Shown here one piece after another: positions 1 through 24,027 of a stretch of DNA of 26,346 nucleotides. A program made the translations under genes and the position numbers. Each line of letters opens with the position of its first letter. Position 1 is the stretch's first letter. This DNA comes from a virus: IMG/VR virus record IMGVR_UViG_3300025131_000359, positions 1 through 26,346 of that record; one strand, 5' to 3'. The notes beneath the pieces were generated by a model. It did no database searches. It was not told where the DNA came from and saw nothing but the letters and a program-made list of their open reading frames with translations.

Positions 1-1
1 C

Positions 2-1054
2 TGGCAGCACTTCGGGAAGGTGGTGGACGACATCACCTCTGTCCCTGCTATCAGGAAGAACGTAGAGCACTACGTCTCTAACGTGATTGAAACGGCGCGC
101 AGGCAGTACATGGTTGATGCGGCTAGACGGATCCTTGACCACGAAGAGAGCGGCTCTCCCTTCTCTGAGCTAATCAAGCTGTCGAGCACCATCACAAACC
201 TAGCCTCCTGGGCTCCTGAGGGCCGTTCAGAGCCACGCACAGCCCACGACATCACTAAGGACTACCTAGACGACCTACAGGCCCAGAGGATGGGCTTGAA
301 GACGAACACGCTTATCTCCACTGGTATCCCTGCTCTAGACAGCATCCTCAAAGTCAGACCTGGGCAGATGGTGATTATCGGTGGCAGGCCCAAGATGGGT
401 AAGAGCGCTGTGATGATGACCCTTCTCTCTAATATCGCTAGGTACAACGGGGCTCCTACGCTCTCTATCAGTGCTGAGATGAACGAGATGCAGATTGGAG
501 AGAGGATTGCGATGTCTGAGGCGAACCTAGGAGAGACTGCAGAAGACCTAGAGGGAGTTAGAGGTAAGATCTTGTCTCGCTGGGACGGTCTGCCTGTCTA
601 TTACGACGATAAGCCTAAGAGCTTAGGCGCTGCTCTCATGTCTATCCGCATGCAGAAGAGCAATCTAGACATCTGTGCCGCTGCAGTGGACTACTTACAG
701 CTTCTGAAGCTCCCTAAGGAGAACAGTAGAGAGCGACAAGTGGCTGAAGCTAGCTCTGCCTTCAAGAGACTGTCTATGGAGCTTAATATTCCTATCTTTG
801 TGCTCGCTCAGCTGAACCGTAGCTGCGAGTACAGAGAGAATAAGCGCCCCATGCTCTCAGACCTTCGTGACTCAGGCCAGATTGAGCAAGATGCAGACGC
901 TGTCATCTTCGTTTACCGCCATTCTGTCTACGATGAGGACCATGAGCCCGTCTCTGACCTTGAGATGATCGTAAGAGCCCAGAGAAACGGTCCTACAGGC
1001 ACTGCTCACTGCTCTTGGGAGCCCGGTAACGGCTGGATAACGAGCAGACGATGA
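2..1054 (+). CDS. DnaB-type replicative DNA helicase (5' partial)
   Basis: Hexameric ATP-driven helicase that unwinds DNA at the phage fork. The frame is open to the left edge (from base 2), so the N-terminal primase-interaction domain is mostly outside. A GTG at base 20 could be read as a start, but residues before it continue the frame and no ribosome site is visible, so I treat the gene as cut. Counting from base 20: a helical linker at about 10-45, Walker A GRPKMGKS at 122-129, the catalytic-glutamate motif SAEM near 151-154, Walker B AAVDYLQL at 221-228, LAQLNR near 262-267, the DLRDSGQIEQDAD signature at 281-293, and a likely arginine finger in QRNGPTG at 321-327. These are the ordered motifs of the DnaB C-terminal RecA-like domain. 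It is joined to the next gene by an ATGA overlap. Confidence 0.95.
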   Translation, partial: WQHFGKVVDDITSVPAIRKNVEHYVSNVIETARRQYMVDAARRILDHEESGSPFSELIKLSSTITNLASWAPEGRSEPRTAHDITKDYLDDLQAQRMGLKTNTLISTGIPALDSILKVRPGQMVIIGGRPKMGKSAVMMTLLSNIARYNGAPTLSISAEMNEMQIGERIAMSEANLGETAEDLEGVRGKILSRWDGLPVYYDDKPKSLGAALMSIRMQKSNLDICAAAVDYLQLLKLPKENSRERQVAEASSAFKRLSMELNIPIFVLAQLNRSCEYRENKRPMLSDLRDSGQIEQDADAVIFVYRHSVYDEDHEPVSDLEMIVRAQRNGPTGTAHCSWEPGNGWITSRR

Positions 1055-1452
1055 GTGACACGCTACTCAGGCTGTTTTCTTACGAGTACGGCAAGGACCA
1101 CTGCCGCCTTCACGACCTTCCGCACGAAGACTGGCGCTTATTCGCCGCAAAGACCTACGCATACGCAGTAGAGCGCGGAGCGAAGGACGGACTGCTCATT
1201 GTGGCAAGCTGGTTAGCCATGAGAGCCGCTACTTTAGGCTGGATGGACGACTTCGCACGGTGGGCAGCTAAGGCTCACTCTGTTGGGACTCCAGACAGCG
1301 CCCTCATAGAGTCTCCTCGCTTCAGGGCGGCTTCTGTGAAGCTAGTGCGGGAGGAGCGCCTGTACGCGGCTGCTAGGGTGTTCAGGCGGGAGTACGAGGA
1401 TGCGTTTGGCTACCCTCTGCACCTCATTACTATGGCAATGGAGATGAGATGA
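1051..1452 (+). CDS. Hypothetical protein, 133 aa, in replication module
   Basis: I do not recognise this protein. It is predicted soluble and mostly helical, rich in Ala, Arg and aromatic residues, with no signal peptide, membrane segment or metal-binding cysteine set. It starts at an ATG inside an ATGA overlap with the helicase stop and ends in an ATGA overlap with the resolvase gene. It is therefore almost certainly translationally coupled to both, and a role in replication or recombination is plausible from position only. The coupling makes it a real gene. Confidence 0.8.
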   Translation: MSDTLLRLFSYEYGKDHCRLHDLPHEDWRLFAAKTYAYAVERGAKDGLLIVASWLAMRAATLGWMDDFARWAAKAHSVGTPDSALIESPRFRAASVKLVREERLYAAARVFRREYEDAFGYPLHLITMAMEMR

Positions 1453-1949
1453 GGGTGTTTGTTGGTGCTGACCCTGGCATGACTGGCGGGCTAGCCGCTG
1501 TAGACGCAGGAGGCAAGCTCCTCTCTGTCATCGCTATGCCTAGAGTGAACGGGAGTGCTGGCCCTCAGGACTATCATGCGATTAAGGCATGGTTCGCTGA
1601 GATGAAGGGGCTAGGGAAGGTTGAGGCTGCTCTAGAGAAGATCTCAGTCAGACCCGGTGAGGGGGTCAAGTCCACACTTACCGCAGGCACAAATTGGGGG
1701 TTCCTCAAGGGAATGCTTGTCGCAATCGGGGCTCGCTATGTAGAGCCCACCCCTCAAGCCTGGAAAAAAGCGCTCTCTCTCCCGAAGAGGTCTGGAAAAG
1801 AGAGGAAGCAAGGAAAGGAAGACGCAGTAGTCCTCGCTACTCAGCTCTTCCCTGGCATCGACCTCACACCAGGGCGTAAGAGAGTCCCACATGATGGTAT
1901 GGCTGACGCTGTGCTTATTGCTGAGTACGCTAGAAGGACGCTAGGGTGA
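1449..1949 (+). CDS. RuvC-like Holliday junction resolvase
   Basis: Nuclease of the RNase H fold that cuts four-way junctions; in phages it debranches replicating DNA before packaging. The 166 aa length fits the RuvC family. Acidic active-site positions are visible: D8 in GADPGMTGG, E63 in ALEKIS, and H148/D149 plus D153 in the C-terminal HDGMADA motif. The PTPQAWKKAL segment (about 100-109) followed by a Lys/Arg-rich stretch (113-123) also matches RuvC-like phage resolvases. The ATG start lies in an overlap with the preceding gene. It ends the plus-strand replication block and converges on the minus-strand gene at 1941, sharing 9 bases. Confidence 0.87.
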   Translation: MRVFVGADPGMTGGLAAVDAGGKLLSVIAMPRVNGSAGPQDYHAIKAWFAEMKGLGKVEAALEKISVRPGEGVKSTLTAGTNWGFLKGMLVAIGARYVEPTPQAWKKALSLPKRSGKERKQGKEDAVVLATQLFPGIDLTPGRKRVPHDGMADAVLIAEYARRTLG

Positions 1950-2726
1950 GATCTCAAGCGGCTCAAAGTCTTCTGCGATAGCCACGTAAGGAGCGCCCTG
2001 TCTGAGGTATCTCTCTACTTCAAGAGCCTGCTCAATACCTTGGAGGTTTTCCGCTGCCTGACTCCTAGCTCGCTCTCTCGCCATCTCTGACAGCAGAGCT
2101 TCTACGTCACCCTGAGTTTGGAGGGACTCGTCCCTAAACACAGAGCCCTCTGGCTGGAAGGCCCCCCCAGGCACAAGCCTTGGCTCTGTTTGAGCCGTAG
2201 GGTTCCCTGCTGACCTAGCGTAGGCTCTTCCTGCTGGCCCAGACACAGCCCCAGCAGTGCCCATAGCTAGAGTTAGCGGCACGGCTGGCTTCAGAGCCCC
2301 CCTAGCTGCTGCCCGAAGAGCGCTAGGTCGAGCTACTGTTGAGGGCGTGGGCGCTCCACGAAGAGCGGCAGAGAGCCTCTGCTCAGCGGCAGCTTCCGCA
2401 GCCTGCTGCGCCCCCCTGTCTATAGCTTGCTCTTGAAGGGCACCCTGAATGAGAGGCCCAACAGTCCCCCCCGCTCTCCCTGCTGGGTTAACGAGTCTTA
2501 AGTAGGCTTCGTTAGAGAGCCTTCTTCCTCCGTGCCCCCCATCAGCGAATTCCCGAAGGATGGTCTCAGGGCCTCTCCCCCAGTACATGCCTCCCGCAGC
2601 AGCAGGCCCAGCAAGATCTAGCGGGACACCCACGCCACGGAGAAACGACTCAACAGGCCCTGCCATAGAGCTTCGCTCCTGTGGGGCATAGAGGGGGGTT
2701 CTTGTCTGGACTGACTTGGGCGGCAT
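1941..2726 (-). CDS. Ala/Gly/Arg-rich hypothetical protein, possible virion protein
   Basis: 261 aa with no enzyme motif I can name. It is unusually rich in Ala, Gly, Arg and Pro, with a helical region around residues 90-130 (many AAE/QQAAEA residues), a short moderately hydrophobic stretch near 148-168 (LTLAMGTAGAVSGPAG), and a helical C-terminus with heptad-like ERARSQAAENLQGIEQALEVERYL. This composition is common in phage proteins that travel inside the head, so that role is inferred. The ATG follows the stop of the 458 aa gene by 2 bases, with AAGGA just upstream, so the two are coupled. The gene contains several coding-strand G6-G7 runs (2162-2168, 2297-2302, 2411-2416, 2466-2472, 2535-2540). 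Confidence 0.78.
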   Translation of the reverse strand: MPPKSVQTRTPLYAPQERSSMAGPVESFLRGVGVPLDLAGPAAAGGMYWGRGPETILREFADGGHGGRRLSNEAYLRLVNPAGRAGGTVGPLIQGALQEQAIDRGAQQAAEAAAEQRLSAALRGAPTPSTVARPSALRAAARGALKPAVPLTLAMGTAGAVSGPAGRAYARSAGNPTAQTEPRLVPGGAFQPEGSVFRDESLQTQGDVEALLSEMARERARSQAAENLQGIEQALEVERYLRQGAPYVAIAEDFEPLEISP

Positions 2727-2728
2727 GG

Positions 2729-4105
2729 TTATCGTCCTTGAAGCCCGCGAACAGGGCCTAGGTAGTTGCTGATTTCCTCAATCCTGGCCCCAGGCTGCAA
2801 GGTGCCGGGTCCGTGGAGAGCGTTAACCTCGTCAATGTACTTCTGACGAAGGGCTTCTTTCCTGACGTTCTTAGCCTCAATCTGAGCTAGGAGGTCTTCT
2901 TGACTGAGAGCCTGCTGATACTCTCCAGGGAGGTTGAAGACCCCGGCTGAGCGCGGCTGTCCTGCTGCGTAACCAGCAAGGGCAGAGGCTGCTCCAACGC
3001 CAGCGCCTATCGTTGCGTCAGTGAGGAGGCTTGCCGGGCTGAAGGCGGATTTAAGCATCTTCTTTACCCCCCCAGCACGAAGGAAGGCCCCGGCCTTGTC
3101 GGCAAGAGATGTTTTCGACGGATCAAGGCCCCGGAAAAGAAGCCTCCCCTCTCCTGGGGTAAAGCGCGGGTCATCCCTTATTTGGTCAATCAATAGGTCC
3201 TTATCCCATGATGACAGGAGCCCCTCGGCCTGGCCCGTCGTCGCCAAGCCCTCCCTCGCGGCCCATTGGGGCACCGCACGGGCGAAGCTCTCCGAATCAA
3301 GCCCCCGCGCCTGCAACGCAGCAAGGTCCCCGGCGGTAAGCGCCGATCCTGCCGACTCAACCGCAGTCCCCGGCCCGTAAGCCCACTGTTCGCTGGGCGC
3401 TTGCCATAAACCGGCCCTATCCCACTGGTGGGCCATTCTCGTGCTGGGCCCCGTATCCATGACGTTGCGGGCAACCTGTGCCCTGCCCTGCGGCAGCTCT
3501 CTCGCAGCGGTAGAAAACCCATGCGGCCAGTTGTGACGACCCCAGTCTTCAGCATTCATCATGTTTGGCAGGCCTGCCCCTCCGGTCATTCGGCCCGCCG
3601 GCCTGCGGGGGAAGTCTCTTGGGTCGCGGGGGAAGGTCTCGGGCGGGAGTTCTACGTTCCCGTAACCAAGGGCCGACACGGGCCCCTCAGGGGCGGGTTT
3701 CCAGAGGGGGACCGTGTCCTGCCACACGCTGTCGGTCGGACGTACCATCCCCTCAACCCACCCGCCATGCCTAGCCTCGACCAACTCGTCTGGGCTGATT
3801 CTAAACGGGTAGACCTTGCCCTTGGGCCCGGCGTAGGTAGCCGCAACGTAGGGGTTGTCGGAAGCGAACGCCGCCCCAAGCCTCCCTCTGTCTGCCGCAA
3901 GGGGGTCAGACCATAACTCAGAGCCGCCACGGATAGCCCTGAGAGGCGGACCCCCGATGGAACCTCCCAATGACCCAGCCTGAGCAGCCGCAAGGGCTAG
4001 TTCGTAGGTTGGTAGCTCTTGCTCAGGGTCAATACGAATCTGAGTAGACTCAGCAGGAGACAAGTCTAGGAGGGGGAGGCTTCTGCGAAAACCGGGGGAG
4101 GGCAT
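2729..4105 (-). CDS. 458 aa protein with ADP-ribosyltransferase-like N-terminal segment
   Basis: Probable multidomain protein, possibly packaged in the virion and delivered to the host. Residues about 55-120 look like the mono-ADP-ribosyltransferase segment found in phage and prophage polyvalent proteins: an Arg motif (IRGG, R59), a later F/Y-A-S-D-N motif with NPYVAATYAGPKGKVYPF (84-101), then ISPDELVEARHGGW (103-116) with Glu residues E107 and E110. This would transfer ADP-ribose from NAD to a target; the catalytic Glu assignment is uncertain. The middle (about 120-330) is Pro/Gly/Arg-rich and unrecognised. A Gly/Ala-rich hydrophobic stretch (TIGAGVGAASALAGYAAG) and a charged helical tail follow. 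The middle is markedly GC-richer than neighbouring genes. The ATG is 2 bases after the 83 aa gene. The enzyme call is moderate; the gene itself is solid. Confidence 0.72.
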   Translation of the reverse strand: MPSPGFRRSLPLLDLSPAESTQIRIDPEQELPTYELALAAAQAGSLGGSIGGPPLRAIRGGSELWSDPLAADRGRLGAAFASDNPYVAATYAGPKGKVYPFRISPDELVEARHGGWVEGMVRPTDSVWQDTVPLWKPAPEGPVSALGYGNVELPPETFPRDPRDFPRRPAGRMTGGAGLPNMMNAEDWGRHNWPHGFSTAARELPQGRAQVARNVMDTGPSTRMAHQWDRAGLWQAPSEQWAYGPGTAVESAGSALTAGDLAALQARGLDSESFARAVPQWAAREGLATTGQAEGLLSSWDKDLLIDQIRDDPRFTPGEGRLLFRGLDPSKTSLADKAGAFLRAGGVKKMLKSAFSPASLLTDATIGAGVGAASALAGYAAGQPRSAGVFNLPGEYQQALSQEDLLAQIEAKNVRKEALRQKYIDEVNALHGPGTLQPGARIEEISNYLGPVRGLQGR

Positions 4106-4107
4106 TC

Positions 4108-4359
4108 TTAGTAAGCGCCCTTAAGCGCCTCTTCCATAGGACCAATGACTCCCTTGCGCCTCTTACCCTTAGGCTTCTCTTTCTTCTGAGCCTTCATCGC
4201 CTTACGGCGCATAGGCTTACGAGGGTGCTTAGGCATAGGAGGACCGCCAATGTTCACGACGATCTTAACTCCAGGCATCTGAGGCTCATCATGGTGCTCC
4301 TCAGCCTCCTTGATCGCCTTCTCTACGTCCTCAACGAGATGCTTCTTAGGGATTTTCAT
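4108..4359 (-). CDS. Small basic protein, 83 aa, histone-like C-terminus
   Basis: Unrecognised family. An acidic helical N-terminus (about 8-25, VEDVEKAIKEAEEHHDE) is followed by a short beta-like GVKIVVNIGG (30-39) and a strongly basic tail with Lys/Arg clusters (about 44-69, RKPMRRKAMKAQKKEKPKGK and on). The tail suggests nucleic-acid binding, or folding only on a partner. The ATG is preceded by GAAGGAAGAAATACTA, a good ribosome site. It is the second gene of the minus-strand cassette, followed after 2 bases by the ART-like gene. Confidence 0.75.
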   Translation of the reverse strand: MKIPKKHLVEDVEKAIKEAEEHHDEPQMPGVKIVVNIGGPPMPKHPRKPMRRKAMKAQKKEKPKGKRRKGVIGPMEEALKGAY

Positions 4360-4402
4360 TAGTATTTCTTCCTTCTAGATTGGGATGCCTTGATAGATAT
4401 CA
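4360..4402 (-). promoter_or_regulatory. Leader of 83 aa gene with CAAGGCATCCCA element
   Basis: The 43 bases between the two small basic genes hold, on the minus strand, TATCAAGGCATCCCAATCT followed by the ribosome site GAAGGAAG. A close copy (ACAAGGCACCCAGAT) sits at the same place before the 43 aa gene. It could be an operator or translational control site, or a remnant of gene duplication. No convincing promoter boxes are seen here. Confidence 0.35.
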
Positions 4403-4534
4403 TTAGTACTTACCTTTAGCCCCACCGGGCTTAAGCTTCTTGCGAGCAGTGTTCATGCGCTTAACGCTCTGCCGCTTAGGGGAGCACTTAGCTGCCCCAG
4501 CCTTCTTCTTCGGTGACCTCTTCTTAGCTGCCAT
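4403..4534 (-). CDS. Very small Lys/Arg-rich protein, 43 aa (protamine-like)
   Basis: A short frame reads MAAKKRSPKKKAGAAKCSPK and continues to a GGAKGKY end. Over a third of residues are Lys or Arg, with SPK/SPKK motifs like those of histone H1 tails, which bind the DNA minor groove. No hydrophobic core is possible, so it is probably disordered until bound to DNA or RNA. The start ATG has AGGG about 9 bases upstream. It is the first gene of the minus-strand cassette and its leader shares a CAAGGCA-CCC element with the leader of the 83 aa gene. A chance open frame is possible at this length, but the biased composition and position argue against it. Confidence 0.62.
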   Translation of the reverse strand: MAAKKRSPKKKAGAAKCSPKRQSVKRMNTARKKLKPGGAKGKY

Positions 4535-4538
4535 TTTC

Positions 4539-4567
4539 TTGCCCTATCTGGGTGCCTTGTTTATTGT
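4539..4567 (+). promoter_or_regulatory. Candidate sigma70-like promoter for packaging genes
   Basis: In the 57-base divergent gap between the 43 aa gene (minus) and the 4592 gene (plus) there is TTGCCC (4539-4544), a 17-base spacer and TATTGT (4562-4567), each matching the sigma70 consensus at four of six positions. A start at about 4574 would leave a short leader with GGAGAAG before the ATG at 4592. The match is modest; the divergent arrangement means some promoter must serve each side. Confidence 0.35.
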
Positions 4568-4591
4568 GTCGGCACACCTACTGGAGAAGTA

Positions 4592-4930
4592 ATGTTTAAT
4601 CCTAGCGAACTTACAGTGAAACAAGCTAGAGCCCGTCTCTGTGAACTTGATATTGCTGGCCTTGAGGAACTTCTTCAAGCAGAGATTGATGGTAAGCACC
4701 GAAGCTCCCTCATGGCAGACATCGGTAGAAACATCGACATGATTAAGACGGCTGAAGAGTCTGAGGCTGCTGAAGAAGAGGTTGTAGAGGCTGTAGAGGT
4801 GGTTGAGGCTAAGCCTGAGCCTAAGGCTGAGCCTGTCTGCATCATCTCAGAGACTGAGTGGTTCAGGTTCCCCCGTGGTGTGCGAAAGGGCTGGGAACGA
4901 CTCGATGACGGGACGTTCAAGAAAAGGTGA
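4592..4930 (+). CDS. Hypothetical protein, 112 aa, helical head plus acidic linker
   Basis: The N-terminal 50 residues (ELTVKQARARLCELDIAGLE and on) form two or three short helices, resembling the small LEM/Rho-N-like helical domains found in many phage head-region proteins. A low-complexity Glu/Val/Ala linker (about 54-80) follows, then EWFRFPRGVRKGWERLDDGTF, an aromatic and basic tail. The function is unknown. The start ATG has GGAGAAG 6 bases upstream. It begins the plus-strand packaging operon and overlaps the next gene by GTGA. Confidence 0.72.
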   Translation: MFNPSELTVKQARARLCELDIAGLEELLQAEIDGKHRSSLMADIGRNIDMIKTAEESEAAEEEVVEAVEVVEAKPEPKAEPVCIISETEWFRFPRGVRKGWERLDDGTFKKR

Positions 4931-5304
4931 GCAAGCGTTGCACCAAGTGTGATGAGTCTCTCCCTCTTTCTTCTTTCCACCGAGACTCAAGGTCTAAGGA
5001 CGGTAGGCGGGCTAGCTGTGCCCCTTGTGTGGCTAAGTCGAGCAGAGCTAGGTCTGAAGCTGAGCCTGTTTGGGACCCTAGCGTCACCCACAAAACATGC
5101 ACTAAGTGCAACCTCATCCTCCATATTGATGACTTCGGGGTAGCCCGCAGAATGATGGATGGCAGGAACTCTCGTTGTAGAGTGTGCTGCTCAGAGGCCA
5201 CTGCTGAGTGGCAGAGGTCAGACGTGGGTCGAGTGAAGCACGCTGAAGCGGTTAGGCGCTATAGAGAGCGCAAGAAGTGGGGAGATAGTGGCGGGAGTCC
5301 CTGA
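4927..5304 (+). CDS. Tandem CxxC zinc-finger protein, 125 aa
   Basis: Two copies of one metal-binding unit: C5-x2-C8 with C31-x2-C34, and C58-x2-C61 with C84-x2-C87. Both share the pattern CTKC, an aromatic F, then DGR before the second CxxC. This treble-clef-like unit matches the zinc-binding part of recombination endonuclease VII-type and related phage proteins. No HNH catalytic residues follow; the C-terminus is a basic helix (GRVKHAEAVRRYRERKK) suited to nucleic acid. A DNA-binding or packaging-accessory role is inferred from its place directly upstream of the terminase genes. It starts at GTG, overlapping the previous stop by 4 bases, and runs 17 bases into the next gene. Confidence 0.78.
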   Translation: MSKRCTKCDESLPLSSFHRDSRSKDGRRASCAPCVAKSSRARSEAEPVWDPSVTHKTCTKCNLILHIDDFGVARRMMDGRNSRCRVCCSEATAEWQRSDVGRVKHAEAVRRYRERKKWGDSGGSP

Positions 5305-5761
5305 GTTTGCTGATGACTATGAGCGGTATGACTGGGAGATCTACCAACGCTATCGGTGCATGGACAAGAGAGACAGGTGGCCCTCAGCAGACGGCATCTT
5401 CGTGCTCGGCCCTCCCCTCCCTCCTGACGCTCTAGTATTCACTCACGACAAAGCTACAGAAGCGTTCAAGCTAGCTACAGCTAAGGGCTACTTAGCCATG
5501 ATCCCCTGCTCTACTGAGCTTGGGATTAGTAAGATTGTAATGAGACGAATCTTCGACAGGATGAACGGGCTAGACATAGCCTTTGTCGTGTACGAAGGAA
5601 CGAAGGCGGGGAGCAGGTACCACTGCCGAATGGTTCACAAGAAGAGCATCGCGTACATGAAAAAGACGCTTCCGCTCTGGATAAGGGAGTCTAGACGTGG
5701 CGGTCAAAAAACGAACCCAGAGAACGTCCGACGAATTAGGAGAGGCGGAACTTCTTCTTGA
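5288..5761 (+). CDS. Probable small terminase subunit / DNA-binding protein
   Basis: 157 aa directly upstream of, and overlapping, the large terminase, the usual place for the small subunit that recognises phage DNA. About residues 77-92 (TELGISKIVMRRIFDR) look like a helix-turn-helix, and the C-terminus is strongly basic (ESRRGGQKTNPENVRRIRRG). No clear small-terminase sequence signature is visible, so the assignment rests on position and the DNA-binding look. The start is GTG at 5288, preceded by GGGGAGATA. The last 65 bases also encode the start of the large terminase in another frame. Confidence 0.6.
   Translation: MAGVPEFADDYERYDWEIYQRYRCMDKRDRWPSADGIFVLGPPLPPDALVFTHDKATEAFKLATAKGYLAMIPCSTELGISKIVMRRIFDRMNGLDIAFVVYEGTKAGSRYHCRMVHKKSIAYMKKTLPLWIRESRRGGQKTNPENVRRIRRGGTSS
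5683..5689 (+). promoter_or_regulatory. Ribosome binding site that fixes the large terminase start
   Basis: AAGGGAG lies 7 bases before GTG 5697. There is no other in-frame ATG, GTG or TTG until well into the conserved N-terminus (first Met is residue 60), so this site supports the GTG start inside the upstream gene. Confidence 0.7.
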
Positions 5762-7637
5762 CGAGAACAAGGACTTCACCACCTTCGCGGAGAAGAACCT
5801 GTTCATCCAGACTAAGAAGGGTGAGCTAATCCCGTTCAAGCTGAACAAGAGCCAAGTGCTCAGACAGAAGATGCTTGATGAGATGGATGCAGCAGGAATA
5901 CCCATCAGAGTCTGGGAGGCCAAGGCTAGGCAGGCAGGATGCAGTACCCACGTTCAAGGCTGGATGTTCCACAGGTGTGTGACGAGGCGTGATGAGGCTG
6001 GGTTGATTGCTGCCCACGCAGACCACGCTGTTCACAGCATCTTTACAAAGACAAAGCTCTTCTTAGACAACCTCCCTGCCCGTCTTCAGCCACTAACGAA
6101 GTACAACAACAGGGCTGAACTAGACTTCAGAGCACCTGTTGGTCCTAACGGTCTACGAAGCAGACTTACAGTGATGACTGCGAAGAGTGCAGAAGACGCT
6201 CGCGGAACGACAGCTAGGCTCGCTCACTTCTCAGAGGTAGCCTTCTATAAGCAACCAGAGCGTTACTTCTTAGCCACACTCCAGTCTATGCCTGACGAGC
6301 CAGGGACCTTTGCCTTTGCCGAGTCTACCTGTAACGGCTCAGGAGACTTTCACCACACAATGTACCTAGGTGCCAGGGTCTGGAACGAGGAGCCCTACCC
6401 CTGGATGCCGCTTAAGAAGAAGTACCCAGGAGACCCCGATTCAACTTGGTTCGCCTACTTCACTCCGTGGTTTATTGTTGATGAGTACACTCGTCCTCTT
6501 AAGTGTTCTCCAGAGGAGTTTGAGAAGTCTATTAACCCAGAAGAGAGGGCTCTTCTTGAGAACTTCGGGGAGTGGATTGACCTAGAGAACCTGTCATGGC
6601 GAAGAGAGACGATTGCTTCCAAGTGTGGTGGCTCAGTAGAGAGATTCCATCAGGAGTACCCAAGCACTGACGAGGAGGCTTTCAGCGCCTCAGGCTCTCC
6701 TGTGTTCGACAGGGACGCCGTCCAGGCTCAGAAGAACATTCATGGGTGTTGGTGCGAGATGTGTCTCCCGTACTCTGGCGCTATTAAGCCCGCTGAGAAT
6801 GTGGCTCCTCCACATAGGTGGTACGAAATAAGGGATATAAGCAATTACCCGCTAGGGAGAGAGCGTCTTTACTCCACCTACAAGCCAGTTCTTGATGAGG
6901 CGTCTGACGGTATGGGGAGGATGTCTGTTTGGGAGGACCCAGAGCCAGGGTGTCGGTACATAGTTAGCGCTGACGTTAGCAAGGGGACTGGGAGTGGGGA
7001 CTGGGACCACCTGTGTGTCTTCAACTTAGCCACCCTTGAGCAGGTTGCTGAGTGGAGGGGCAAGATTGAGTTAGACGCTCTGTCCCCCCTGTGTCTTCTT
7101 GTCGCCATTTACTACAACAACGCCATTCTAGCCCCAGAGGTGACTGGCCTTGGGGCTGGTCTGATTGCTCTGCTTGAGCGCTCTAGGTATTGGAACCTGT
7201 ACAGGCGAATCACTACAGACACGCTTGGTGGTCCTGGGATCCACCTTGGGTGGGACACGAACAGAAAGACAAAGCCTGCGATGGTTGGTCTGATGCAGAA
7301 GTCTATCAAGGAGGCTTATGTAAAAATTAGGTCGCGGGCTGTACTTGATGAGATGGAGGCGTACACGCGCACCGTCCTCTATAGCCGTGACGGCATTGAT
7401 TCCTTGCAGGCGAGGATGGGCGCTCCCCCTGGAAAGAATGATGACGCTTGTGTGTCAGCGATGATTGCTGTGGCAGTCGCCCACTACACCCCTGGAGGCA
7501 TGACGAAGATCAACGCCACAGAAGTGGACATGGACAAGGCTATGGACCACAACCAGTGGTCAGATGAGGACTGGTCTACTTACGAGCAGAGTCAGTCTGC
7601 TACGAGAAGGCTACTCAGTGGGAAGAGGCGGCAGTAA
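5697..7637 (+). CDS. Terminase large subunit
   Basis: Motor that packages DNA into the prohead and cuts it. Two domains are visible in 646 aa. ATPase: an adenine-side segment with IPFKLNKSQ (45-53), a Walker A-like KARQAGCST (76-84, the degenerate type common in phage terminases), Walker B with catalytic Glu LAHFSE (175-180) and the coupling motif ESTCNG (209-214). RNase H-like nuclease: D426 in SADVSKG, E481 in APEVTG, and D582/D583 in NDDACVSAM. The length is normal. The GTG start lies 65 bases inside the upstream gene. The stop end runs 23 bases into the oppositely oriented zinc/winged-helix gene. A CxC-x2-C cluster near 351-356 (CWCEMC) is an oddity that could bind metal. Confidence 0.95.
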   Translation: MAVKKRTQRTSDELGEAELLLDENKDFTTFAEKNLFIQTKKGELIPFKLNKSQVLRQKMLDEMDAAGIPIRVWEAKARQAGCSTHVQGWMFHRCVTRRDEAGLIAAHADHAVHSIFTKTKLFLDNLPARLQPLTKYNNRAELDFRAPVGPNGLRSRLTVMTAKSAEDARGTTARLAHFSEVAFYKQPERYFLATLQSMPDEPGTFAFAESTCNGSGDFHHTMYLGARVWNEEPYPWMPLKKKYPGDPDSTWFAYFTPWFIVDEYTRPLKCSPEEFEKSINPEERALLENFGEWIDLENLSWRRETIASKCGGSVERFHQEYPSTDEEAFSASGSPVFDRDAVQAQKNIHGCWCEMCLPYSGAIKPAENVAPPHRWYEIRDISNYPLGRERLYSTYKPVLDEASDGMGRMSVWEDPEPGCRYIVSADVSKGTGSGDWDHLCVFNLATLEQVAEWRGKIELDALSPLCLLVAIYYNNAILAPEVTGLGAGLIALLERSRYWNLYRRITTDTLGGPGIHLGWDTNRKTKPAMVGLMQKSIKEAYVKIRSRAVLDEMEAYTRTVLYSRDGIDSLQARMGAPPGKNDDACVSAMIAVAVAHYTPGGMTKINATEVDMDKAMDHNQWSDEDWSTYEQSQSATRRLLSGKRRQ

Positions 7638-7995
7638 GCCCGTAGACTCCCCACCCTGTCTTCACGATGTCGCCTGGATTTTTGTATACAACCTCGTACA
7701 CATCCTCTTTCGGCAGACCGCTAGCCTCTACGATGTCCTTTAAGCGCATCTCCCCCTGCTTCCTAAGGAGGGCTTCGATGGCATCCCTGGTGGGGTGTGC
7801 TGTGGGAGCCTTCTCTTCGTTAGGGCTTGGGATGTCAACGACTGCCGCTATCGCAGCCCCGAAGCGGCCACAGTGCCAACAACGGACCTCTCTAAAGTTA
7901 GACCGCTCAGCGATGTCGTAGATGGCTGACTTCGTTGTCCAGGCAAAGTCCCTGCTGCACAGCGGGCTCACACACTTCATGTCGTAAATACGCAT
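7615..7995 (-). CDS. Zinc-ribbon and winged-helix protein, 126 aa
   Basis: The N-terminal half has C8-x4-C13 and C39-x-H-C42, a probable zinc ribbon. The C-terminal half (about 68-122, from TRDAIEALLRKQGEMRLKDI) has the helix pattern and the GVYGL beta wing of a winged-helix DNA-binding domain like HARE-HTH or similar. It is probably a small transcription or DNA-binding factor; the target is unknown. AAGGGGAAG before the ATG is a strong ribosome site. It lies 15 bases downstream of the portal gene on the same strand, so it is likely co-transcribed with it, and its end overlaps the end of the large terminase gene. Confidence 0.78.
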   Translation of the reverse strand: MRIYDMKCVSPLCSRDFAWTTKSAIYDIAERSNFREVRCWHCGRFGAAIAAVVDIPSPNEEKAPTAHPTRDAIEALLRKQGEMRLKDIVEASGLPKEDVYEVVYKNPGDIVKTGWGVYGLTAASSH

Positions 7996-8010
7996 TACTT
8001 CCCCTTAGTT

Positions 8011-9975
8011 TTAGAATCTGCCCATCACAGCTTCAGCGCTGGATGGAGCTACCTCTCTCGGCCCAGTCCCAGCAAGGGTCTCTCCTTCAGCCCCCATGCC
8101 AGTGTTCTCTACGCCACCTTCAGCCCGTGGGTCTTCAGCCGCTTGCCCAGCAGCCCCGGCAGAGATAGCTGCTCCTTGTAGCTGCGACAAGGGACCGACA
8201 AGGACTCTCTTGTCTTGTCGCCATACCTTGAAGGCTTGATCCATGAAGTTTTGAATTGTGTCAGGAGGAAGCACTCCTCCCTGAACCAGAGGAGCAAGCG
8301 TTCCAGTGACTCCCTGGATAGTCTGAAGCAGACCCATAAAGGCTCTCTGCTCTTCCGCAGGATCAACTGGGATTGTAGACCCAGCCTGAATGTTCACATC
8401 GTAGAAGCCCTGGATGTCAGAGGCAGTAAAGGAGATGAACTCATCATCCCCAGCATCACCGTCAATCCTTAGGTAACGAACCTCATCGAAGTACTGACGC
8501 ATGATTGAAAGCATCTTGCGGCCAATGTTTGAGATGAACTTCTCTGTTCCCTCTAGGCGCATACCAACACGACCCTTAGTAGCAGCAGAGGCAATAGCGA
8601 CCTCAGTCGCTGTGGTCCCCTTGCGGCTTGCTCCTCCACGCTGGAACGAGTCAATGCCTGAGATCTCATACATCAGCTTAGACAGACCACTAAGAACCAT
8701 TGGAGTGGTACTCGGAGGGGGAGCTTCAGGCAGGAGCATAAGAGCATCCTGAATTCTAGCCACGCTGGCAGGAACCTCAGCTACAGCCATGTCTTCCTCA
8801 GACTCAAGGAGTCCAGCAAGCTGACCAGACTCAAGGGCTCCAGGGGCAGCAACGAACTTGCGCCGTGAAGACAAGCGGTGGTGCCTAAGGATGTAAGCCC
8901 ACTCGTCGTTAAGCCGCTGAGAGATGTCCTTGATGGAGTAGAGGTCAGCCACTCGCGTGCTGTAGAAGTTGTTAGGAACATCGACAAAGCGAAGGACTTC
9001 GTAGGGGTAGCCCTTCATTTCAATCGGGTCTGCGATGTGCCGAAGGATAGAATCCTGAGCATCACCAGTTCCTGGGTTCTTAAGCATCCACATGACGTAA
9101 CGACGAAGCCCGTCACCCGCATCACCCCAGTATCGAACCTCATAGAGCGTCACATACTCAGGCTCAATCTCGGGCTGGTTGAGATTGTTATGAGCCGAGT
9201 GCCCAGTAAGGGTTGCTGGGATTGCCTCTTCAAGCCAGGAGTCAGCAACAACGCTGTGGGGGACGTTAAACCTGTCGTCTTCTCTCAGGTCGTCAAGACG
9301 AACAATCATTCGCTCGCAAACCCAAGGGCACTTCTTAAGGTCTGTGTATCCAGGGGGGATGAGTAGGTCCCACGGGCAAACCCTGTTGTACGTTGGGTTG
9401 TCGTCAGGGCCTTCCTCAAACGACATCTGGTCGTCTGCCATGATTCTACGAAGCTGTCGCTGTTGCTCAGCGGTAAGGGCTCCGTCCTGCTCGTTCCCAG
9501 GCAGCGGCTTCTCTGGACCACTGTCGTAGTCTTCCTCTGTGTAGAAGGAGCCACTCCCCTCGTAGCCGACCTTAGCCACACCGATGCCAAACAAGATGGT
9601 GTCTAAGACAACGCTGCGAGTTGTTTTGTTTCCGTCAATCTCATTCCAGATGTAATTCAAAGCAGTCTCTGCCACACGGGCAGACTCTTTGTCACCGGGA
9701 CGACGAGGCTTAACGTAAATATATGGGTTGGCTGAGATGACCCCAGGGATGATGGTGTTGGCGTTAGCCAAGAGGAAGTTGAAGTTAACTTCCTGTCCCT
9801 CTTCAAAGTGGAGACCGTCTGGCCCTCCAGCCCCTTCAGCCGAGTAGGCATGCTGGACAGAGCGCCAAATTGGGAGGTGGTTTTCCTCAATAATCCTTTC
9901 TGACTCCTCGATCTTTTCGACCCAGGTTGAGATTTCTGAGGAAGACATCTGAATTTTTATATTTTCGTTTGGCAT
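8011..9975 (-). CDS. Portal protein
   Basis: Dodecameric ring at the unique vertex through which DNA enters and leaves. The protein is about 654 aa, in the range for podovirus portals. The N-terminal part has the portal-family order: an early helix (about SSEISTWVEKIEESERIIEE), HLPIWRSVQHAY, NFNFLLANANTIIPGVISANP, and NKTTRSVVLDTILFGIGVAK; a long helical stretch later includes the RRKFVAAPGA region; the C-terminus is Ala/Gly-rich. I place the start at the ATG 9973-9975. A TTG at 9996 in frame would add 7 residues but has no good ribosome site; the ATG has only a short-spaced GGAACC. It is on the minus strand, opposite to the terminase and the capsid genes, which is unusual. Confidence 0.88.
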   Translation of the reverse strand: MPNENIKIQMSSSEISTWVEKIEESERIIEENHLPIWRSVQHAYSAEGAGGPDGLHFEEGQEVNFNFLLANANTIIPGVISANPYIYVKPRRPGDKESARVAETALNYIWNEIDGNKTTRSVVLDTILFGIGVAKVGYEGSGSFYTEEDYDSGPEKPLPGNEQDGALTAEQQRQLRRIMADDQMSFEEGPDDNPTYNRVCPWDLLIPPGYTDLKKCPWVCERMIVRLDDLREDDRFNVPHSVVADSWLEEAIPATLTGHSAHNNLNQPEIEPEYVTLYEVRYWGDAGDGLRRYVMWMLKNPGTGDAQDSILRHIADPIEMKGYPYEVLRFVDVPNNFYSTRVADLYSIKDISQRLNDEWAYILRHHRLSSRRKFVAAPGALESGQLAGLLESEEDMAVAEVPASVARIQDALMLLPEAPPPSTTPMVLSGLSKLMYEISGIDSFQRGGASRKGTTATEVAIASAATKGRVGMRLEGTEKFISNIGRKMLSIMRQYFDEVRYLRIDGDAGDDEFISFTASDIQGFYDVNIQAGSTIPVDPAEEQRAFMGLLQTIQGVTGTLAPLVQGGVLPPDTIQNFMDQAFKVWRQDKRVLVGPLSQLQGAAISAGAAGQAAEDPRAEGGVENTGMGAEGETLAGTGPREVAPSSAEAVMGRF

Positions 9976-10050
9976 GGTTCCGATGGTACTTGACAAAACT
10001 TTCTGGTTAAACTCATATCCAGATCACGCGATAATGCGTTTGGAGGAACC
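9976..10050. promoter_or_regulatory. Divergent intergenic region, portal versus scaffold
   Basis: This 75-base gap must hold transcription and translation signals for both directions. On the plus strand there is a perfect -35 TTGACA (9990-9995); 18 bases on is CATATC, a poor -10, while GATAAT at 10030-10035 is a good -10 but lies 34 bases away. CTGG-12-CCAG forms a small symmetric element at 10003-10022. The two leaders share GGAACCATG as a 9-base inverted repeat (9973-9981 and 10045-10053). The scaffold ribosome site is GGAGGA. A promoter is likely but its exact boxes are not settled. Confidence 0.4.
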
Positions 10051-10863
10051 ATGACACTAGAGACGCCCATCGACAACTTTGAAGAAACCCTCGACGAGGA
10101 TAATTCTGAAGAGATCGGTAGTGAGGCTGACGATGCCTATGGTGAAGAAGAGCATCTAGCTGACCAAGTTGAACCTGAGCAAGAAAGCGACGAGGATTCT
10201 TTCTGGGGTGGAAACCCTGAAGAGCTTCCTGAAGAGTTAAAGGCTTCTTACAAGAACATGCAGGCTGCGTTCACTAAAAGAATGCAGCGAATGGCTACTC
10301 TTGAAAATAAGTACTTTGATTCTATCGACGCTGCCAATGCTGCCGTGCTTGCACGACAGGAAGCTCAGGCTCCCGTTGAGGAAGTTGAAGAGGATAGTCC
10401 TCCTGACCTTTCTCAGGGAGCAAAGCCTGAAGACGTAATCTCCTATTACGTTGAGAAGGAGGTTCAGAAAAGACTTGAAGCCTCCGGCATCAAGAACTTG
10501 GCCCAGGAGATGCAACCCGTTGCACATCGAGAGAGAGTTACAGGGGCTTACCGACAGTTTGCTTCCTCTGCTCCCAACCTCGATCACCAGAAGCTTGCGC
10601 CGCTGACAGGTCAGATCATTGATAATGATCCTGAGCTTGCTCAGTTGGCACAGGTCAACCCTGCCGCTGCCATTCGTCTCGCTGCCCGTGTTGCACAGGC
10701 TGAGATGAAGGCAGTATCTACTAAACAAAAAAGTCGAAAGCGTCGTCAGGCAGCTCCTGTGTCGGCTCGTAGTGGAACCGTTGTTAAGCCTAGGCGAGAG
10801 TCTATGCTTGATGCAGCCACCAGAGCCCTCAAAGAAGCTGGTTTGAATCCAGACAATTTCTAA
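10051..10863 (+). CDS. Capsid scaffolding protein
   Basis: Internal protein on which the prohead shell is assembled. 270 aa with the usual scaffold look: a very acidic N-terminus (about 1-50), a central helical/coiled region (KASYKNMQAAFTKRMQRMATL near 64-84 and EDVISYYVEKEVQKRLEASG near 126-145), and a basic C-terminal part (KQKSRKRRQ near 225-233) that would bind the capsid protein. No enzyme motif or protease signature was seen. It lies directly upstream of the major capsid gene. The ribosome site GGAGGA is 4 bases before the ATG. Confidence 0.82.
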   Translation: MTLETPIDNFEETLDEDNSEEIGSEADDAYGEEEHLADQVEPEQESDEDSFWGGNPEELPEELKASYKNMQAAFTKRMQRMATLENKYFDSIDAANAAVLARQEAQAPVEEVEEDSPPDLSQGAKPEDVISYYVEKEVQKRLEASGIKNLAQEMQPVAHRERVTGAYRQFASSAPNLDHQKLAPLTGQIIDNDPELAQLAQVNPAAAIRLAARVAQAEMKAVSTKQKSRKRRQAAPVSARSGTVVKPRRESMLDAATRALKEAGLNPDNF

Positions 10864-10880
10864 TTAAATAAGGAAATATC

Positions 10881-11972
10881 GTGGCAAATCCAACAGCTAC
10901 TATTACTTGGAACCGGGTCTACTCGACTACCGCAGCGGCAGAACGCGCTTCGGTAGCGATGGAGATCGTTCAGGCTAACCCTCTCCTCTGGCACATGTAC
11001 CGCCAGGGCGCAGTTATCTACGAGGGAGGCACTGAGTGTCGTGTCCCCGTGGTCCTCACCGAGTCGCAGAACATTGGTGCCATTGGCACTTATGAGACTT
11101 TCTCTACCACTGCGGAAGACGGTCCTACCAAGGCCCGCTACCCCAACTGGTACAAGAACCGCGCTTCGATGGTCATTGACAACACTGAGCTTGCTCAGAA
11201 CCGTGGCAAGTACCAGATCGTCAACCTCCTTCAGGCCAAGCAGGCGATTTCTAAGATCAGCATGATTAACGACCTTGCTCGTCAGATGTACGCTGATGGT
11301 GGCGCAGAGTCCGCCACCTCGACCACTCCGAAAGAAATTAACGGACTTCAGTCAATGCTGGACTTCGCTACTTTCGGAACTCAGACAGGCAACGTTGGCG
11401 GGATCGCGAAGGGTGATTTCACTTCTACGTGGCAGAACCAGTACGGCGCAATCACTGCGTTCGGCACTGATGGTCTAGACGTTTGGGAAGAGGTCTACAT
11501 GAACTGCTCTAAGAAGGGCACTCATCCTGACATCATCCTGACGGACCCGCAGGTCTACCGCTTCTTCAAGCGACTCGTTGCTCCTAATCAGGAAGAGCGA
11601 GACGTTGCGATGTGGAACCAGGGCTTTGAGAACCTGCTCTTCAACGGAACCCCCGTGGTCCCCGATGAGGAACTCGCAGCAACTGGCAAGACCTTCTTCT
11701 TGACGACCAGTGGAAAGCGCGGAGTCACCGACTTCAACCTGAAGCCGGAATACTTTGAGGTCCCCGGCAAGAACCCGCTTGTTCAGGGTAAGGGCACGGC
11801 CATTGGCCTTCAGCTCGCCATCCTGTCTTCGGACGACTTCCGTCAGACTGAGTTCCTCACGCCGCCTAACAGCGATGTGATCCTCAGCCATACCTACTTC
11901 ACCTCGATGCTGGTTGCGTCGTCGTTGTCCCGTCAGGGCTGCGTCGATTTCGCTGGCGCGATTCAGTTTTAA
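10881..11972 (+). CDS. Major capsid protein (HK97-like fold)
   Basis: Main shell protein, 363 aa. The order of motifs fits phage capsid proteins: an N-terminal arm, EGGTECRVPVVL (E-loop/beta region near 48-59), the long helix around 111-138, INGLQSML near 152-159, and PDIILTDPQVYRFFKRL near 217-233, the P-domain helix conserved in this family. It starts with GTG at 10881, with AAGGAAA 6-7 bases upstream; MANPTAT is a common capsid start. Arginine is coded by CGN only, unlike most neighbouring genes, consistent with high expression. It lies between the scaffold and a decoration-type protein. Confidence 0.93.
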   Translation: MANPTATITWNRVYSTTAAAERASVAMEIVQANPLLWHMYRQGAVIYEGGTECRVPVVLTESQNIGAIGTYETFSTTAEDGPTKARYPNWYKNRASMVIDNTELAQNRGKYQIVNLLQAKQAISKISMINDLARQMYADGGAESATSTTPKEINGLQSMLDFATFGTQTGNVGGIAKGDFTSTWQNQYGAITAFGTDGLDVWEEVYMNCSKKGTHPDIILTDPQVYRFFKRLVAPNQEERDVAMWNQGFENLLFNGTPVVPDEELAATGKTFFLTTSGKRGVTDFNLKPEYFEVPGKNPLVQGKGTAIGLQLAILSSDDFRQTEFLTPPNSDVILSHTYFTSMLVASSLSRQGCVDFAGAIQF

Positions 11973-11992
11973 GCTAAGAGAGGGATACTAAA

Positions 11993-12514
11993 ATGTCTGA
12001 TTTTATGTTTGGTGGTTCAGCTCTTACGCTGGACATTGGTGTTCGTAATGATACTGGTGCCGCTGTCGTCGCTGGTGATGTTGTGCAGATTGACTTCGCA
12101 CAGGGCGCAGTTGGGCAGGATGGCTATGGAGCCGTTACGCCCGCAGCGGGTGGTGCCGACAATGGATGGGCCGACAACCCGTTGGACGTTGGTTCTGGCT
12201 TCTTTTCGGTGACGGGCTCTGTTGTCGCGCCGACTGGGGCTAGCATCCAGACCCTTGACGGAATGATTATTCGCGTTGGAGGCGCTGCCCAGGTTCAGGT
12301 GCTTGCTCCTGGCGGCGGTATCGCAGTAGGAGACTTGCTTGACATCTCTCCTGGCAACGACTGGTTGGTTATCTCCGGTATGAACGGTGGAAATATCTCT
12401 GTTGCCAATACTGCGGCTTCAATCGGCTTGATTCGTGGCGTTGCTCTAGAGGCTCTCGGCGCTGGCCTGACCTCTGTTATCAACGTATGGCTCCGTCCGT
12501 TCGGCGGCGCATAA
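11993..12514 (+). CDS. Probable capsid decoration protein
   Basis: 173 aa, Gly/Val/Ala-rich and mostly beta, resembling capsid-associated decoration proteins of the DUF2190-like type: IAVGDLLDISPGNDW (about 105-119) then a small-domain end ALEALGAGLTSVINVWLRPF. It would sit on the outside of the shell and stabilise it; this rests on composition, motif and position directly after the major capsid gene. The ribosome site GAGAGGGA precedes the ATG. A strong hairpin follows the stop. Confidence 0.72.
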   Translation: MSDFMFGGSALTLDIGVRNDTGAAVVAGDVVQIDFAQGAVGQDGYGAVTPAAGGADNGWADNPLDVGSGFFSVTGSVVAPTGASIQTLDGMIIRVGGAAQVQVLAPGGGIAVGDLLDISPGNDWLVISGMNGGNISVANTAASIGLIRGVALEALGAGLTSVINVWLRPFGGA

Positions 12515-12530
12515 TAAACAACGTGTGTCG

Positions 12531-12554
12531 GGTGGGGGGCTTCGGCCCCCTGCC
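12531..12554 (+). terminator. UUCG-capped hairpin between capsid genes
   Basis: GGTGGGGGGC and GCCCCCTGCC pair into a 10-bp stem (two G-U pairs) around a TTCG tetraloop, 16 bases after the decoration gene stop. Such stems are strong terminator or RNA-stability elements. Only TTA follows, not a U-tract, so it may be a partial terminator or processing site that sets lower expression downstream. Confidence 0.6.
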
Positions 12555-12578
12555 TTACGCAACTAGGAGATTAGAATT

Positions 12579-13031
12579 ATGGCTGTTGCAGCACACGTTA
12601 GCCGGGTAGCGAAAGATTACGCTCCGCACGGTTATTCAATTATGGCCGAGGTAAGCAAAGAGATCTCGATTGATGAGGGCGAGGAGGACTTTACATTCGT
12701 TTATCTGATGCCGGATGACGCAGACATCTATGTGGAGTCTGTTGTCATTTCATCGTTTGACGGCATTGGTGCGGCGACCACCGACACCCTTTCGATCACG
12801 GTTCAGTCCGTGGACGATGCTGGCTGGGCAAACGCTCAGCAGATTGCGTTCCGCACTTTTGACTCTGACGAGGATGACGGAACTGCTTTGGCCGCAAAGA
12901 CTCAGGAGTCGCTTACTGTGACGAACCCGGTTGTTGCTAAGGGCAAGTTCTTGAACGTCGTCCTTACCCCAATCGGCACCTCGCCTGAGACAATCCTGGA
13001 CCTCCAAATCCGCTACCGCCGCAAGGCTTAG
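12579..13031 (+). CDS. Small beta-rich structural protein, 150 aa
   Basis: I do not recognise a named family. It is acidic and beta-rich with alternating strands (for example IYVESVVISSF, TLSITVQSV, LDLQIRYR), like small jelly-roll virion proteins, and lies between the decoration protein and the neck adaptor. It could be a second decoration protein or a head-tail joining part. The ribosome site AGGAG lies about 9 bases before the ATG. It lies after the UUCG hairpin, and its Arg codons are mostly CGN like the capsid genes. Confidence 0.72.
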   Translation: MAVAAHVSRVAKDYAPHGYSIMAEVSKEISIDEGEEDFTFVYLMPDDADIYVESVVISSFDGIGAATTDTLSITVQSVDDAGWANAQQIAFRTFDSDEDDGTALAAKTQESLTVTNPVVAKGKFLNVVLTPIGTSPETILDLQIRYRRKA

Positions 13032-23600: not shown

Positions 23601-24027
23601 GGCTAGGAGTGAGCAGGATATTGCCGCTGAAGCCAAGCTAGTCTCTGCCAGGAAACCGCTCAGTGCCTCCGCCGCTAAGCAACAGTCTAGAAGGACTGCT
23701 GAGCTAAAGGCTGAGGCCCGCGATTCGGCTAAGGCTAGAGAGAACAAGGAGTTGCTAGCTGAGTTTAATAAGATCACCAGCCAAGCGGAGGACCTCTTGA
23801 TACAGAGGAACGCCGGGGAGTCGCTGAGCGCAGGAGCCGTTGAGCCAGTTACGTCTGGGCTAAGGGCGATTATTTCCACGTTGGTTGAGAAGCGCGAGCT
23901 TGAAGGGGGCGAACTGTGGGGCGACAGAATCTTCACCCCAGGCACGCCACCTCAGCTCCGACGCGGGACGAGCATCTCCAAAGACATCCGAAACCTGAGG
24001 TACTTACTTAGCGAGCTTGGCGGGTAG
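20605..24027 (+). CDS. LysM-containing large virion/ejection protein, 1140 aa
   Basis: Probably ejected or internal virion protein that meets the cell wall. Residues about 559-623 form a LysM peptidoglycan-binding domain: VHTVKPGEFVYGIAKSYGAS, then ALIKANQ, and IFPGEKLRIP, with a longer-than-usual loop in between. Before it are two repeats of an about 48-residue helical unit (starting near 356 and 405: LREAVRLISEGRAVDAQELL and LNRAVQELMDQGRYIDAQNL), TPR-like. The N-terminus is helical and basic; residues about 150-340 are Pro/Gly-rich low complexity. The C-terminal third is long helices, rich in Ala, Lys and Glu. AGGAAC precedes the ATG. No lytic catalytic motif is evident, so binding only is inferred. 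Confidence 0.82.
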   Translation: MPFILPAGDYEAALRMAGASNFMEAFESGIDRNIRRRGQREALRQQRDLYERGLGLEKERLAEKHLSGIEGYDRDFPAVATAGANEAALADVVTAASTQAAVDGALAEEAAVASPDTSAIHAKIRENRMARRAAQGVPVVQATPAQVEQAVVAAATPIPGVTPRPVSGSVPAESGWSEDDIARLTEIGFIGSNSANNMLHAARRYRASGDAATAELLERRAAMTEGGSFSDSRANARSTDLFRVTPPGPVYGPVAPPAEKPWWYGRDEGGPRLGPELPPGYRPPGRQYTQQELALGTPRPGVAYGPARPVGVVTPDPDPVITEIWRAPNVVDVGSLPPEEFALATPRGESQREVQLREAVRLISEGRAVDAQELLGASGKAYPSLGVETAAEGPTIPPDAGPGIALNRAVQELMDQGRYIDAQNLIGEAGQVYPDARTEEALSGGAPIDERPVPSDWMVEPIAVDLPPEGDAVSDAASAAGAIGASLPGGGGSSAIQAALSAMAGGSPVEAAAKAATPSPLEAAIATGAEAKERAELVGPEVEVSTAPVEVIDEKTGKVHTVKPGEFVYGIAKSYGASPQALIKANQSLFIGKDGKARSLKTKGGKLLAGADLIFPGEKLRIPTGEGRETGGPAGPVDTREGVKEGVLAKAEKGAKSEKEVVARLEKEQAKRTDVPLNPFQAFGRDIGYTPSVGAVAYATHMAEQGDFSMINMMAGRVVKNAELPGLFARYSNFASGARRRSKEILLEEKLAKETQANAAKQKAAMGVRTMALTQFQRAGHGLEDAQLFAGHYADLWAVDPQQARAWSTSLNAMGTERARAEAETIKHGRKNYGGGRTGVVAPDGRGTAKMIASAEKRLDKLARTRGDALRPLLQARGLSEGMRLGDDDLAALAKDPAYAAALTAYNQANERYVSQKNQLDILINGRPEKPSPFDMLTSSKKIADLADKYGETGDWDGFTREISLYGEVTPEIAEQVVEFFSGKAPPAVTPSKVTSSPKARSEQDIAAEAKLVSARKPLSASAAKQQSRRTAELKAEARDSAKARENKELLAEFNKITSQAEDLLIQRNAGESLSAGAVEPVTSGLRAIISTLVEKRELEGGELWGDRIFTPGTPPQLRRGTSISKDIRNLRYLLSELGG
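21670..21906 (+). repeat. Tandem TPR-like helical repeat in LysM gene
   Basis: Two in-frame units of about 48-49 residues, each with A-V-x-x-L/I, a Gly-Arg, D-A-Q-x-L-(L/I)-G and a final (A/V)YP: AVRLISEGRAVDAQELLGAS and AVQELMDQGRYIDAQNLIGE. They probably pack as pairs of helices, mediating contact with another virion protein. Confidence 0.65.

What the first reader, a model, noticed from the sequence alone, without database searches (positions are those of the whole stretch)
3745..3945. ADP-ribosyltransferase-like domain in a minus-strand phage gene
Residues about 55-120 of the 458 aa protein show R59 in IRGG, then ASDNPYVAATYAGPKGKVYPF and E107/E110, matching the spaced Arg / aromatic-Ser / Tyr-Glu pattern of phage polyvalent ADP-ribosyltransferases. 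If active, it would modify a host protein or RNA early after injection. It sits with two protamine-like proteins in a cassette that is not part of the main late operon, which suggests a host-takeover or virion-packaged effector set.
Basis: partly seen in the sequence, partly recalled or inferred. Interest (0 to 1): 0.65.

Follow-up and report, generated by a model that had tools for sequence, protein, structure and literature searches.

The report
Divergent ADP-ribosyltransferase-like module in phage
A phage gene carries a short stretch that looks like a worn or divergent piece of the enzyme family phages use to tag host molecules with ADP-ribose; it sits in a slot that close relatives have filled with something else, and whether it still works as an enzyme is not shown.

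Summary
An ADP-ribosyltransferase (ART) link is plausible but unproven. No Pfam, PHROG, NCBIfam or PDB sequence match; no match to Pfam ART-PolyVal; a profile from 14 independently gathered phage ARTs scores it like shuffled sequence; no ART fold or Foldseek match came from the models. For it: an IMG/VR scan with only the motif AxxYAxxxGxVYP (residues 88-100) found 28 in-frame families, about a dozen of them clear polyvalent ARTs; all seven families with the window's extended motif F-x-S-x5-motif are ARTs. R59, S82, Y91 and GxVYP persist in a divergent relative (L003); E107 and E110 do not. The clearer result is modularity: in two contigs 98% identical on both sides, residues about 68-339, including most of the ART-like segment, are replaced by unrelated sequence. 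Best reading: a divergent ART-PolyVal-like module, possibly inactive, in an exchangeable slot.

The parts
2729..4105 (-). 458-aa protein gene holding the ART-like segment
   Evidence: ORF; synonymous bias against L002; identical in L001
3776..3943 (-). ART-like segment, residues 55-110: LRAIRGG...GAAFASDNPYVAATYAGPKGKVYPFRISPDELVE
   Evidence: motif shared with ART-PolyVal phage proteins; 56% identity over residues 57-95 with L003; AF2 pLDDT 72-86 for residues about 75-104 only
3806..3868 (-). core: residues 80-100, with predicted helix 85-92 and strand 97-101
   Evidence: secondary structure; extended motif F.S.{5}A..YA...G.VYP
3903..4105 (-). N-terminal constant part (residues 1-67), kept in L002/L004; residues 1-58 at 69% identity in L011
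3089..3902 (-). exchangeable middle: replaced by an unrelated 592-bp stretch in L002/L004, divergent in L003
   Evidence: blastn junctions at 3903 and 3088 with 97-98% identity either side
2729..3088 (-). C-terminal constant part (last about 115 residues), with a Gly/Ala-rich hydrophobic stretch (residues 360-378) and a predicted helix 402-431
   Evidence: 99% and 83% identity to L002 and L003; hydropathy; AF2 helix
1941..2726 (-). 261-aa protein, next gene, 2 nt downstream; optional module, absent in L003, kept next to a different upstream gene end in L015
4108..4359 (-). 83-aa lysine-rich basic protein, first gene of the set, AAGGAAG Shine-Dalgarno-like site at 4368-4374

Best explanation
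Residues about 55-110 are the first half (strand 1, strand 2, helix, strand 3) of a divergent ADP-ribosyltransferase module related to the polyvalent-protein ARTs (ART-PolyVal, His-Tyr-Asp class), with Arg in place of the strand-1 His, Phe (Tyr in relative L003) in strand 2 and no recognisable strand-5 Asp. It occupies an exchangeable middle slot between constant N- and C-terminal parts of a small phage protein encoded with a basic 83-aa protein and an optional 261-aa protein. If active it would bind NAD+ between strand 1 and the strand-2/helix loop and mono-ADP-ribosylate a host macromolecule early in infection; the hydrophobic C-terminal stretch would fit delivery with the virion. Shown: the gene, the motif, its conservation in L003, the module exchange. 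Inferred: ART ancestry (about 0.7), enzyme activity (about 0.3), virion delivery (about 0.35).
For: Motif-only scan of IMG/VR: 28 in-frame families, about 12 with an upstream YHG in the ART layout; all seven ART families checked hit Pfam ART-PolyVal, E 6e-18 to 8e-5 (three of the seven above and four below Pfam's cut-off). Every family with the extended motif at the window's exact spacing is ART and none of about 14 others has it. L070: GAIFVSPDERVANTYAGPGGSVYPLYI against window GAAFASDNPYVAATYAGPKGKVYPFRI. L003 conserves RG, SDPLA, GAA, S.NP, AATYA, G.VYP within an otherwise diverged middle. AF2 with an 11-row alignment gives strand 55-59 and a confident helix plus strand for about 75-104. 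A profile of that alignment has H-Y-E class ARTs as its best PDB matches, E 0.2-1.1; that profile is dominated by known ARTs. Polyvalent ARTs occur in a wide range of architectures (PMC5512222).
Against: No Pfam, PHROG, NCBIfam or PDB match for the protein itself; no PF18760 match at E<=10 while control phages ring. Profile of 14 independently gathered ARTs: -2.4 bits, within shuffles; hhalign 0.5%. Models: pLDDT 35 and 48.5, no Foldseek match. Catalytic His absent; the YDG(I/V) Asp motif seen in the reference ARTs is absent (nearest GYGNV at 147); E107/E110 not conserved.
Confidence: 0.5

Rival explanations
1. Degenerate ART: the module descends from an ART but has lost catalysis and now serves as a binding or structural part of a phage protein.
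For: Strand-1 His replaced, strand-2 Tyr is Phe in the window, no Asp motif, E107/E110 not kept; the module is dispensable, being replaced in L002/L004.
Against: R59, S82, Y91 and GxVYP are kept in the divergent L003 while the rest of the middle has diverged; a YRG variant of the layout also occurs in Vibrio phage D479.
Confidence: 0.25
2. Not an ART: a Gly/Ala/Pro-rich phage structural or accessory protein whose 88-100 stretch resembles the ART motif by chance.
For: All profile, family and fold searches negative; about half the in-frame proteins with the 13-residue motif are not ARTs; in the motif-fixed control 1.1% of shuffles and 3.9% of real segments score as well.
Against: None of the non-ART motif carriers has the extended motif, all extended-motif carriers are ARTs; selective keeping of those residues in L003.
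Confidence: 0.25
3. One reading: an R-S-E class ART (Alt/VIP2-like) with R59, S82 and E107/E110, made to modify host protein or RNA right after injection.
For: R59, S82, E107 and E110 exist in the order named.
Against: E107/E110 align with Asn and Arg in L003; no E-x-E; the phrog_832 (RNA polymerase ADP-ribosylase) match is at residues 262-304 with E 0.26, i.e. chance; motif-sharing proteins are ART-PolyVal, the H-Y-D class.
Confidence: 0.06

Closest known systems
ART-PolyVal (Pfam PF18760), ADP-ribosyltransferases of phage polyvalent proteins
   Same: Order and spacing of strand-1 [H/R]G, [FY]x[ST]x5AxxYAxxxGxVYP; Gly/Ala-rich hydrophobic tails also follow ARTs in some small phage proteins (L061, L097)
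   Different: Arg instead of His, no profile match, no YDG(I/V) Asp motif, host protein short (458 aa) rather than a large multidomain polypeptide
Vibrio phage D479 hypothetical protein VPHD479_0070 (P0001)
   Same: YRG...TFLTENIHQAATYAGPDG, same R-for-H variant of the layout
   Different: Match not significant (E 7); no further homology; gene near an RNA ligase gene; not known to be in a swap slot
T4 Alt/ModA/ModB and the Alt/VIP2 R-S-E ARTs
   Same: Arg as the first motif residue; early host-modifying role proposed
   Different: No profile match in this region, no E-x-E; spacing shorter (from memory, not tested)

Membership tests
ART-PolyVal (PF18760) | match to the family profile | tested here: not met
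   no match at E<=10 in window, G001, G003; hmmscan none; controls ring
ART-PolyVal (PF18760) | strand-1 His (YHG) | tested here: not met
   IRG in window, FRG/LRG in L003; all motif-sharing ARTs have YHG or FHG
ART-PolyVal (PF18760) | strand-2 aromatic then helix AxxYA and strand GxVYP at fixed spacing | tested here: met
   Phe in window, Tyr in L003
ART-PolyVal (PF18760) | strand-5 Asp (YDG[IV] in the reference set) | tested here: not met
   not found by eye in residues 104-200; nearest GYGNV at 147
ART-PolyVal (PF18760) | ART fold | tested here: inconclusive
   low-confidence models, no Foldseek match
ART-PolyVal (PF18760) | NAD+-dependent transferase activity | not testable with these tools
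   needs assay
R-S-E ART (Alt/VIP2) | conserved catalytic Glu (ExE/QxE) | tested here: not met
   E107 and E110 replaced in L003; no E-x-E there
R-S-E ART (Alt/VIP2) | conserved strand-1 Arg | tested here: met
   R59 kept in L003; kept in L002/L004 too, but there the rest of the ART-like segment is gone

The most novel reading that the evidence does not exclude
The gene is an effector slot: constant ends (N-terminal 48-67 residues, C-terminal 115 residues with a membrane-like stretch) act as a delivery frame, and the middle is exchanged between an Arg-type ART-like module and an unrelated module, with a neighbouring 261-aa module also optional, in phages otherwise 98% identical nearby; the ART-like module would be an H-to-R variant of the polyvalent class.
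Probability: 0.25. Interest if true: 0.5.

Novelty: new variant of a known kind. Interest (0 to 1): 0.35.

Why it matters
If the module is an ART, it adds an Arg-for-His variant to the polyvalent ART class and shows an ART module being swapped out as a unit between near-identical phages, which would make it possible to compare sister phages that differ mainly, in that region, by one effector. If it is degenerate, it shows how such modules decay.

Tried and rejected
AF2 on the full protein with L003 (pLDDT 35) and on residues 45-175 with 11 rows (48.5): no usable fold; the second alignment contains known ARTs, so even its partial agreement is not independent. First HMM test put the window above all 25,000 shuffles, but three of its seven references had been found through the window's own motif or similarity and one more at one remove (Usaquen); repeated with independent ARTs the excess vanished. 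Genome-contig scans found no relatives. L003's weak match to NCBIfam A1S_2505_Nterm (E 0.081) was not resolved. The middle of L002/L004 looked GNAT-like to the eye (polyvalent GNATs often neighbour ARTs), but Pfam and PHROGs gave nothing at E<=10, so no claim is made. Joining L011 and L003 (same sample, abutting at gatataaa) into one gene is an inference, not used as evidence for the full protein.

Full report
What is there. The window is a virus record of 26,346 bases with a DnaB-like helicase, a Holliday junction resolvase, a large terminase subunit, a portal protein and a major head protein. A related IMG/VR contig of 52,763 bases (G001, holding L002) carries the same gene order and both its ends fall in the gene corresponding to window 14385-16631, so it looks like a nearly complete circularly permuted genome. 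The gene of the finding, 4105-2729 minus, lies between the replication genes and the terminase, second of three minus-strand genes spaced 2 nt apart: an 83-aa lysine-rich protein, the 458-aa protein and a 261-aa protein. The quoted residues are correct. Only one of the neighbours is protamine-like.

Relatives. Few exist in the collections searched: L001 is identical; L002 and L004 keep residues 1-67 and about 340-458 at 97-98% DNA identity, but window 3902-3089 is replaced by an unrelated 592 bp. Over window 1-12645 this is the only interruption against G001. L011 and L003, two contigs of one sample, hold a third version with a diverged N-terminus (69% over residues 1-58), a diverged middle and a C-terminus at 83%; L003 lacks the 261-aa gene exactly, window 2727 joining 1945. 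L015 keeps the 261-aa gene with a different upstream gene end. So the slot is modular.

Is the segment an ART? Direct searches are negative: Pfam, PHROGs, NCBIfam, PDB sequences, and PF18760 at E<=10, although control phages ring above cut-off. A profile from 14 phage ARTs gathered by tblastn from bona fide PF18760 members puts the window protein at -2.4 bits, among shuffles, though in the right register. hhalign gives 0.5% against that set. An earlier, favourable HMM test was biased by how its references were found and is set aside.

The positive evidence is motif-based. A scan of IMG/VR for AxxYAxxxGxVYP (residues 88-100) gave 69 loci, 50 with a long in-frame ORF, 28 families. About a dozen families have YHG upstream in the ART layout, and all seven ART families scanned match ART-PolyVal with E between 6e-18 and 8e-5, three of them over Pfam's cut-off. 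Extending the motif by F80 and S82 leaves only ART families besides the window. With the 13-residue core held fixed, the rest of the region beats 98.9% of shuffles and 96% of real phage segments against those motif-selected ARTs. In L003 the residues kept in an otherwise diverged middle are those of the motif. Together I put ART ancestry near 0.7.

Which ART, and is it active? The literature assigns polyvalent ARTs to the H-Y-D class and Alt/VIP2 to R-S-E (PMC5512222). Every motif-sharing ART family has His where the window has R59; strand 2 has Phe in the window and Tyr in L003; the YDG(I/V) Asp of the reference set has no evident counterpart. That this Asp is the strand-5 catalytic one is my inference from its conservation. 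E107 and E110 align with Asn and Arg in L003, while E118 is invariant.

Fold. Two AF2 jobs gave low-confidence models (pLDDT 34.8 and 48.5); the second shows strand 55-59, helix 85-92 and strand 97-101 with good local confidence only for about residues 75-104, and Foldseek found nothing in PDB or BFVD. The fold test is inconclusive, not negative.

Function. The C-terminal constant part has a Gly/Ala-rich hydrophobic stretch, as seen after the ART in small phage proteins such as L061 and L097, which would fit delivery with the virion; no packaging evidence exists. PMC9503650 notes that phage ARTs often sit near packaging and head genes, as here.

Verdict. A divergent, possibly inactive ART-PolyVal-like module in an exchangeable slot of a phage gene: a new variant of a known kind, moderate to low interest.

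Noticed in passing
L002:5226-5795 and L004: The unrelated middle that replaces the ART-like module has no family match; by eye it resembles a GNAT-type acetyltransferase, not confirmed.
   Followed up: partly
window 4927-5304: 125-aa protein matching endonuclease VII (E 6e-17) and Lar-like restriction alleviation (E 3e-16) PHROGs, possible zinc-finger nuclease or counter-defence gene.
   Followed up: no
window 8011-9996 and 7615-7995: Portal gene and a 126-aa gene lie on the minus strand inside an otherwise plus-strand packaging and structural region.
   Followed up: no
window 20605-24027: 1140-aa protein with a LysM domain is mosaic against G001 (50% identity).
   Followed up: no
L032, L033, L034: 283- and 267-aa open frames in phage contigs with a C-terminal YYTG...VYFSDNPEVAKVYAGPDG segment, an ART-like layout with Tyr at the His place and no Pfam match.
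   Followed up: partly
L061, L097: Small phage proteins in which an ART-PolyVal-type domain is followed by a short hydrophobic C-terminal stretch.
   Followed up: no
L015:1-336: Different gene end upstream of the 261-aa gene in otherwise 96-97% identical sequence, a fourth arrangement of the slot.
   Followed up: partly
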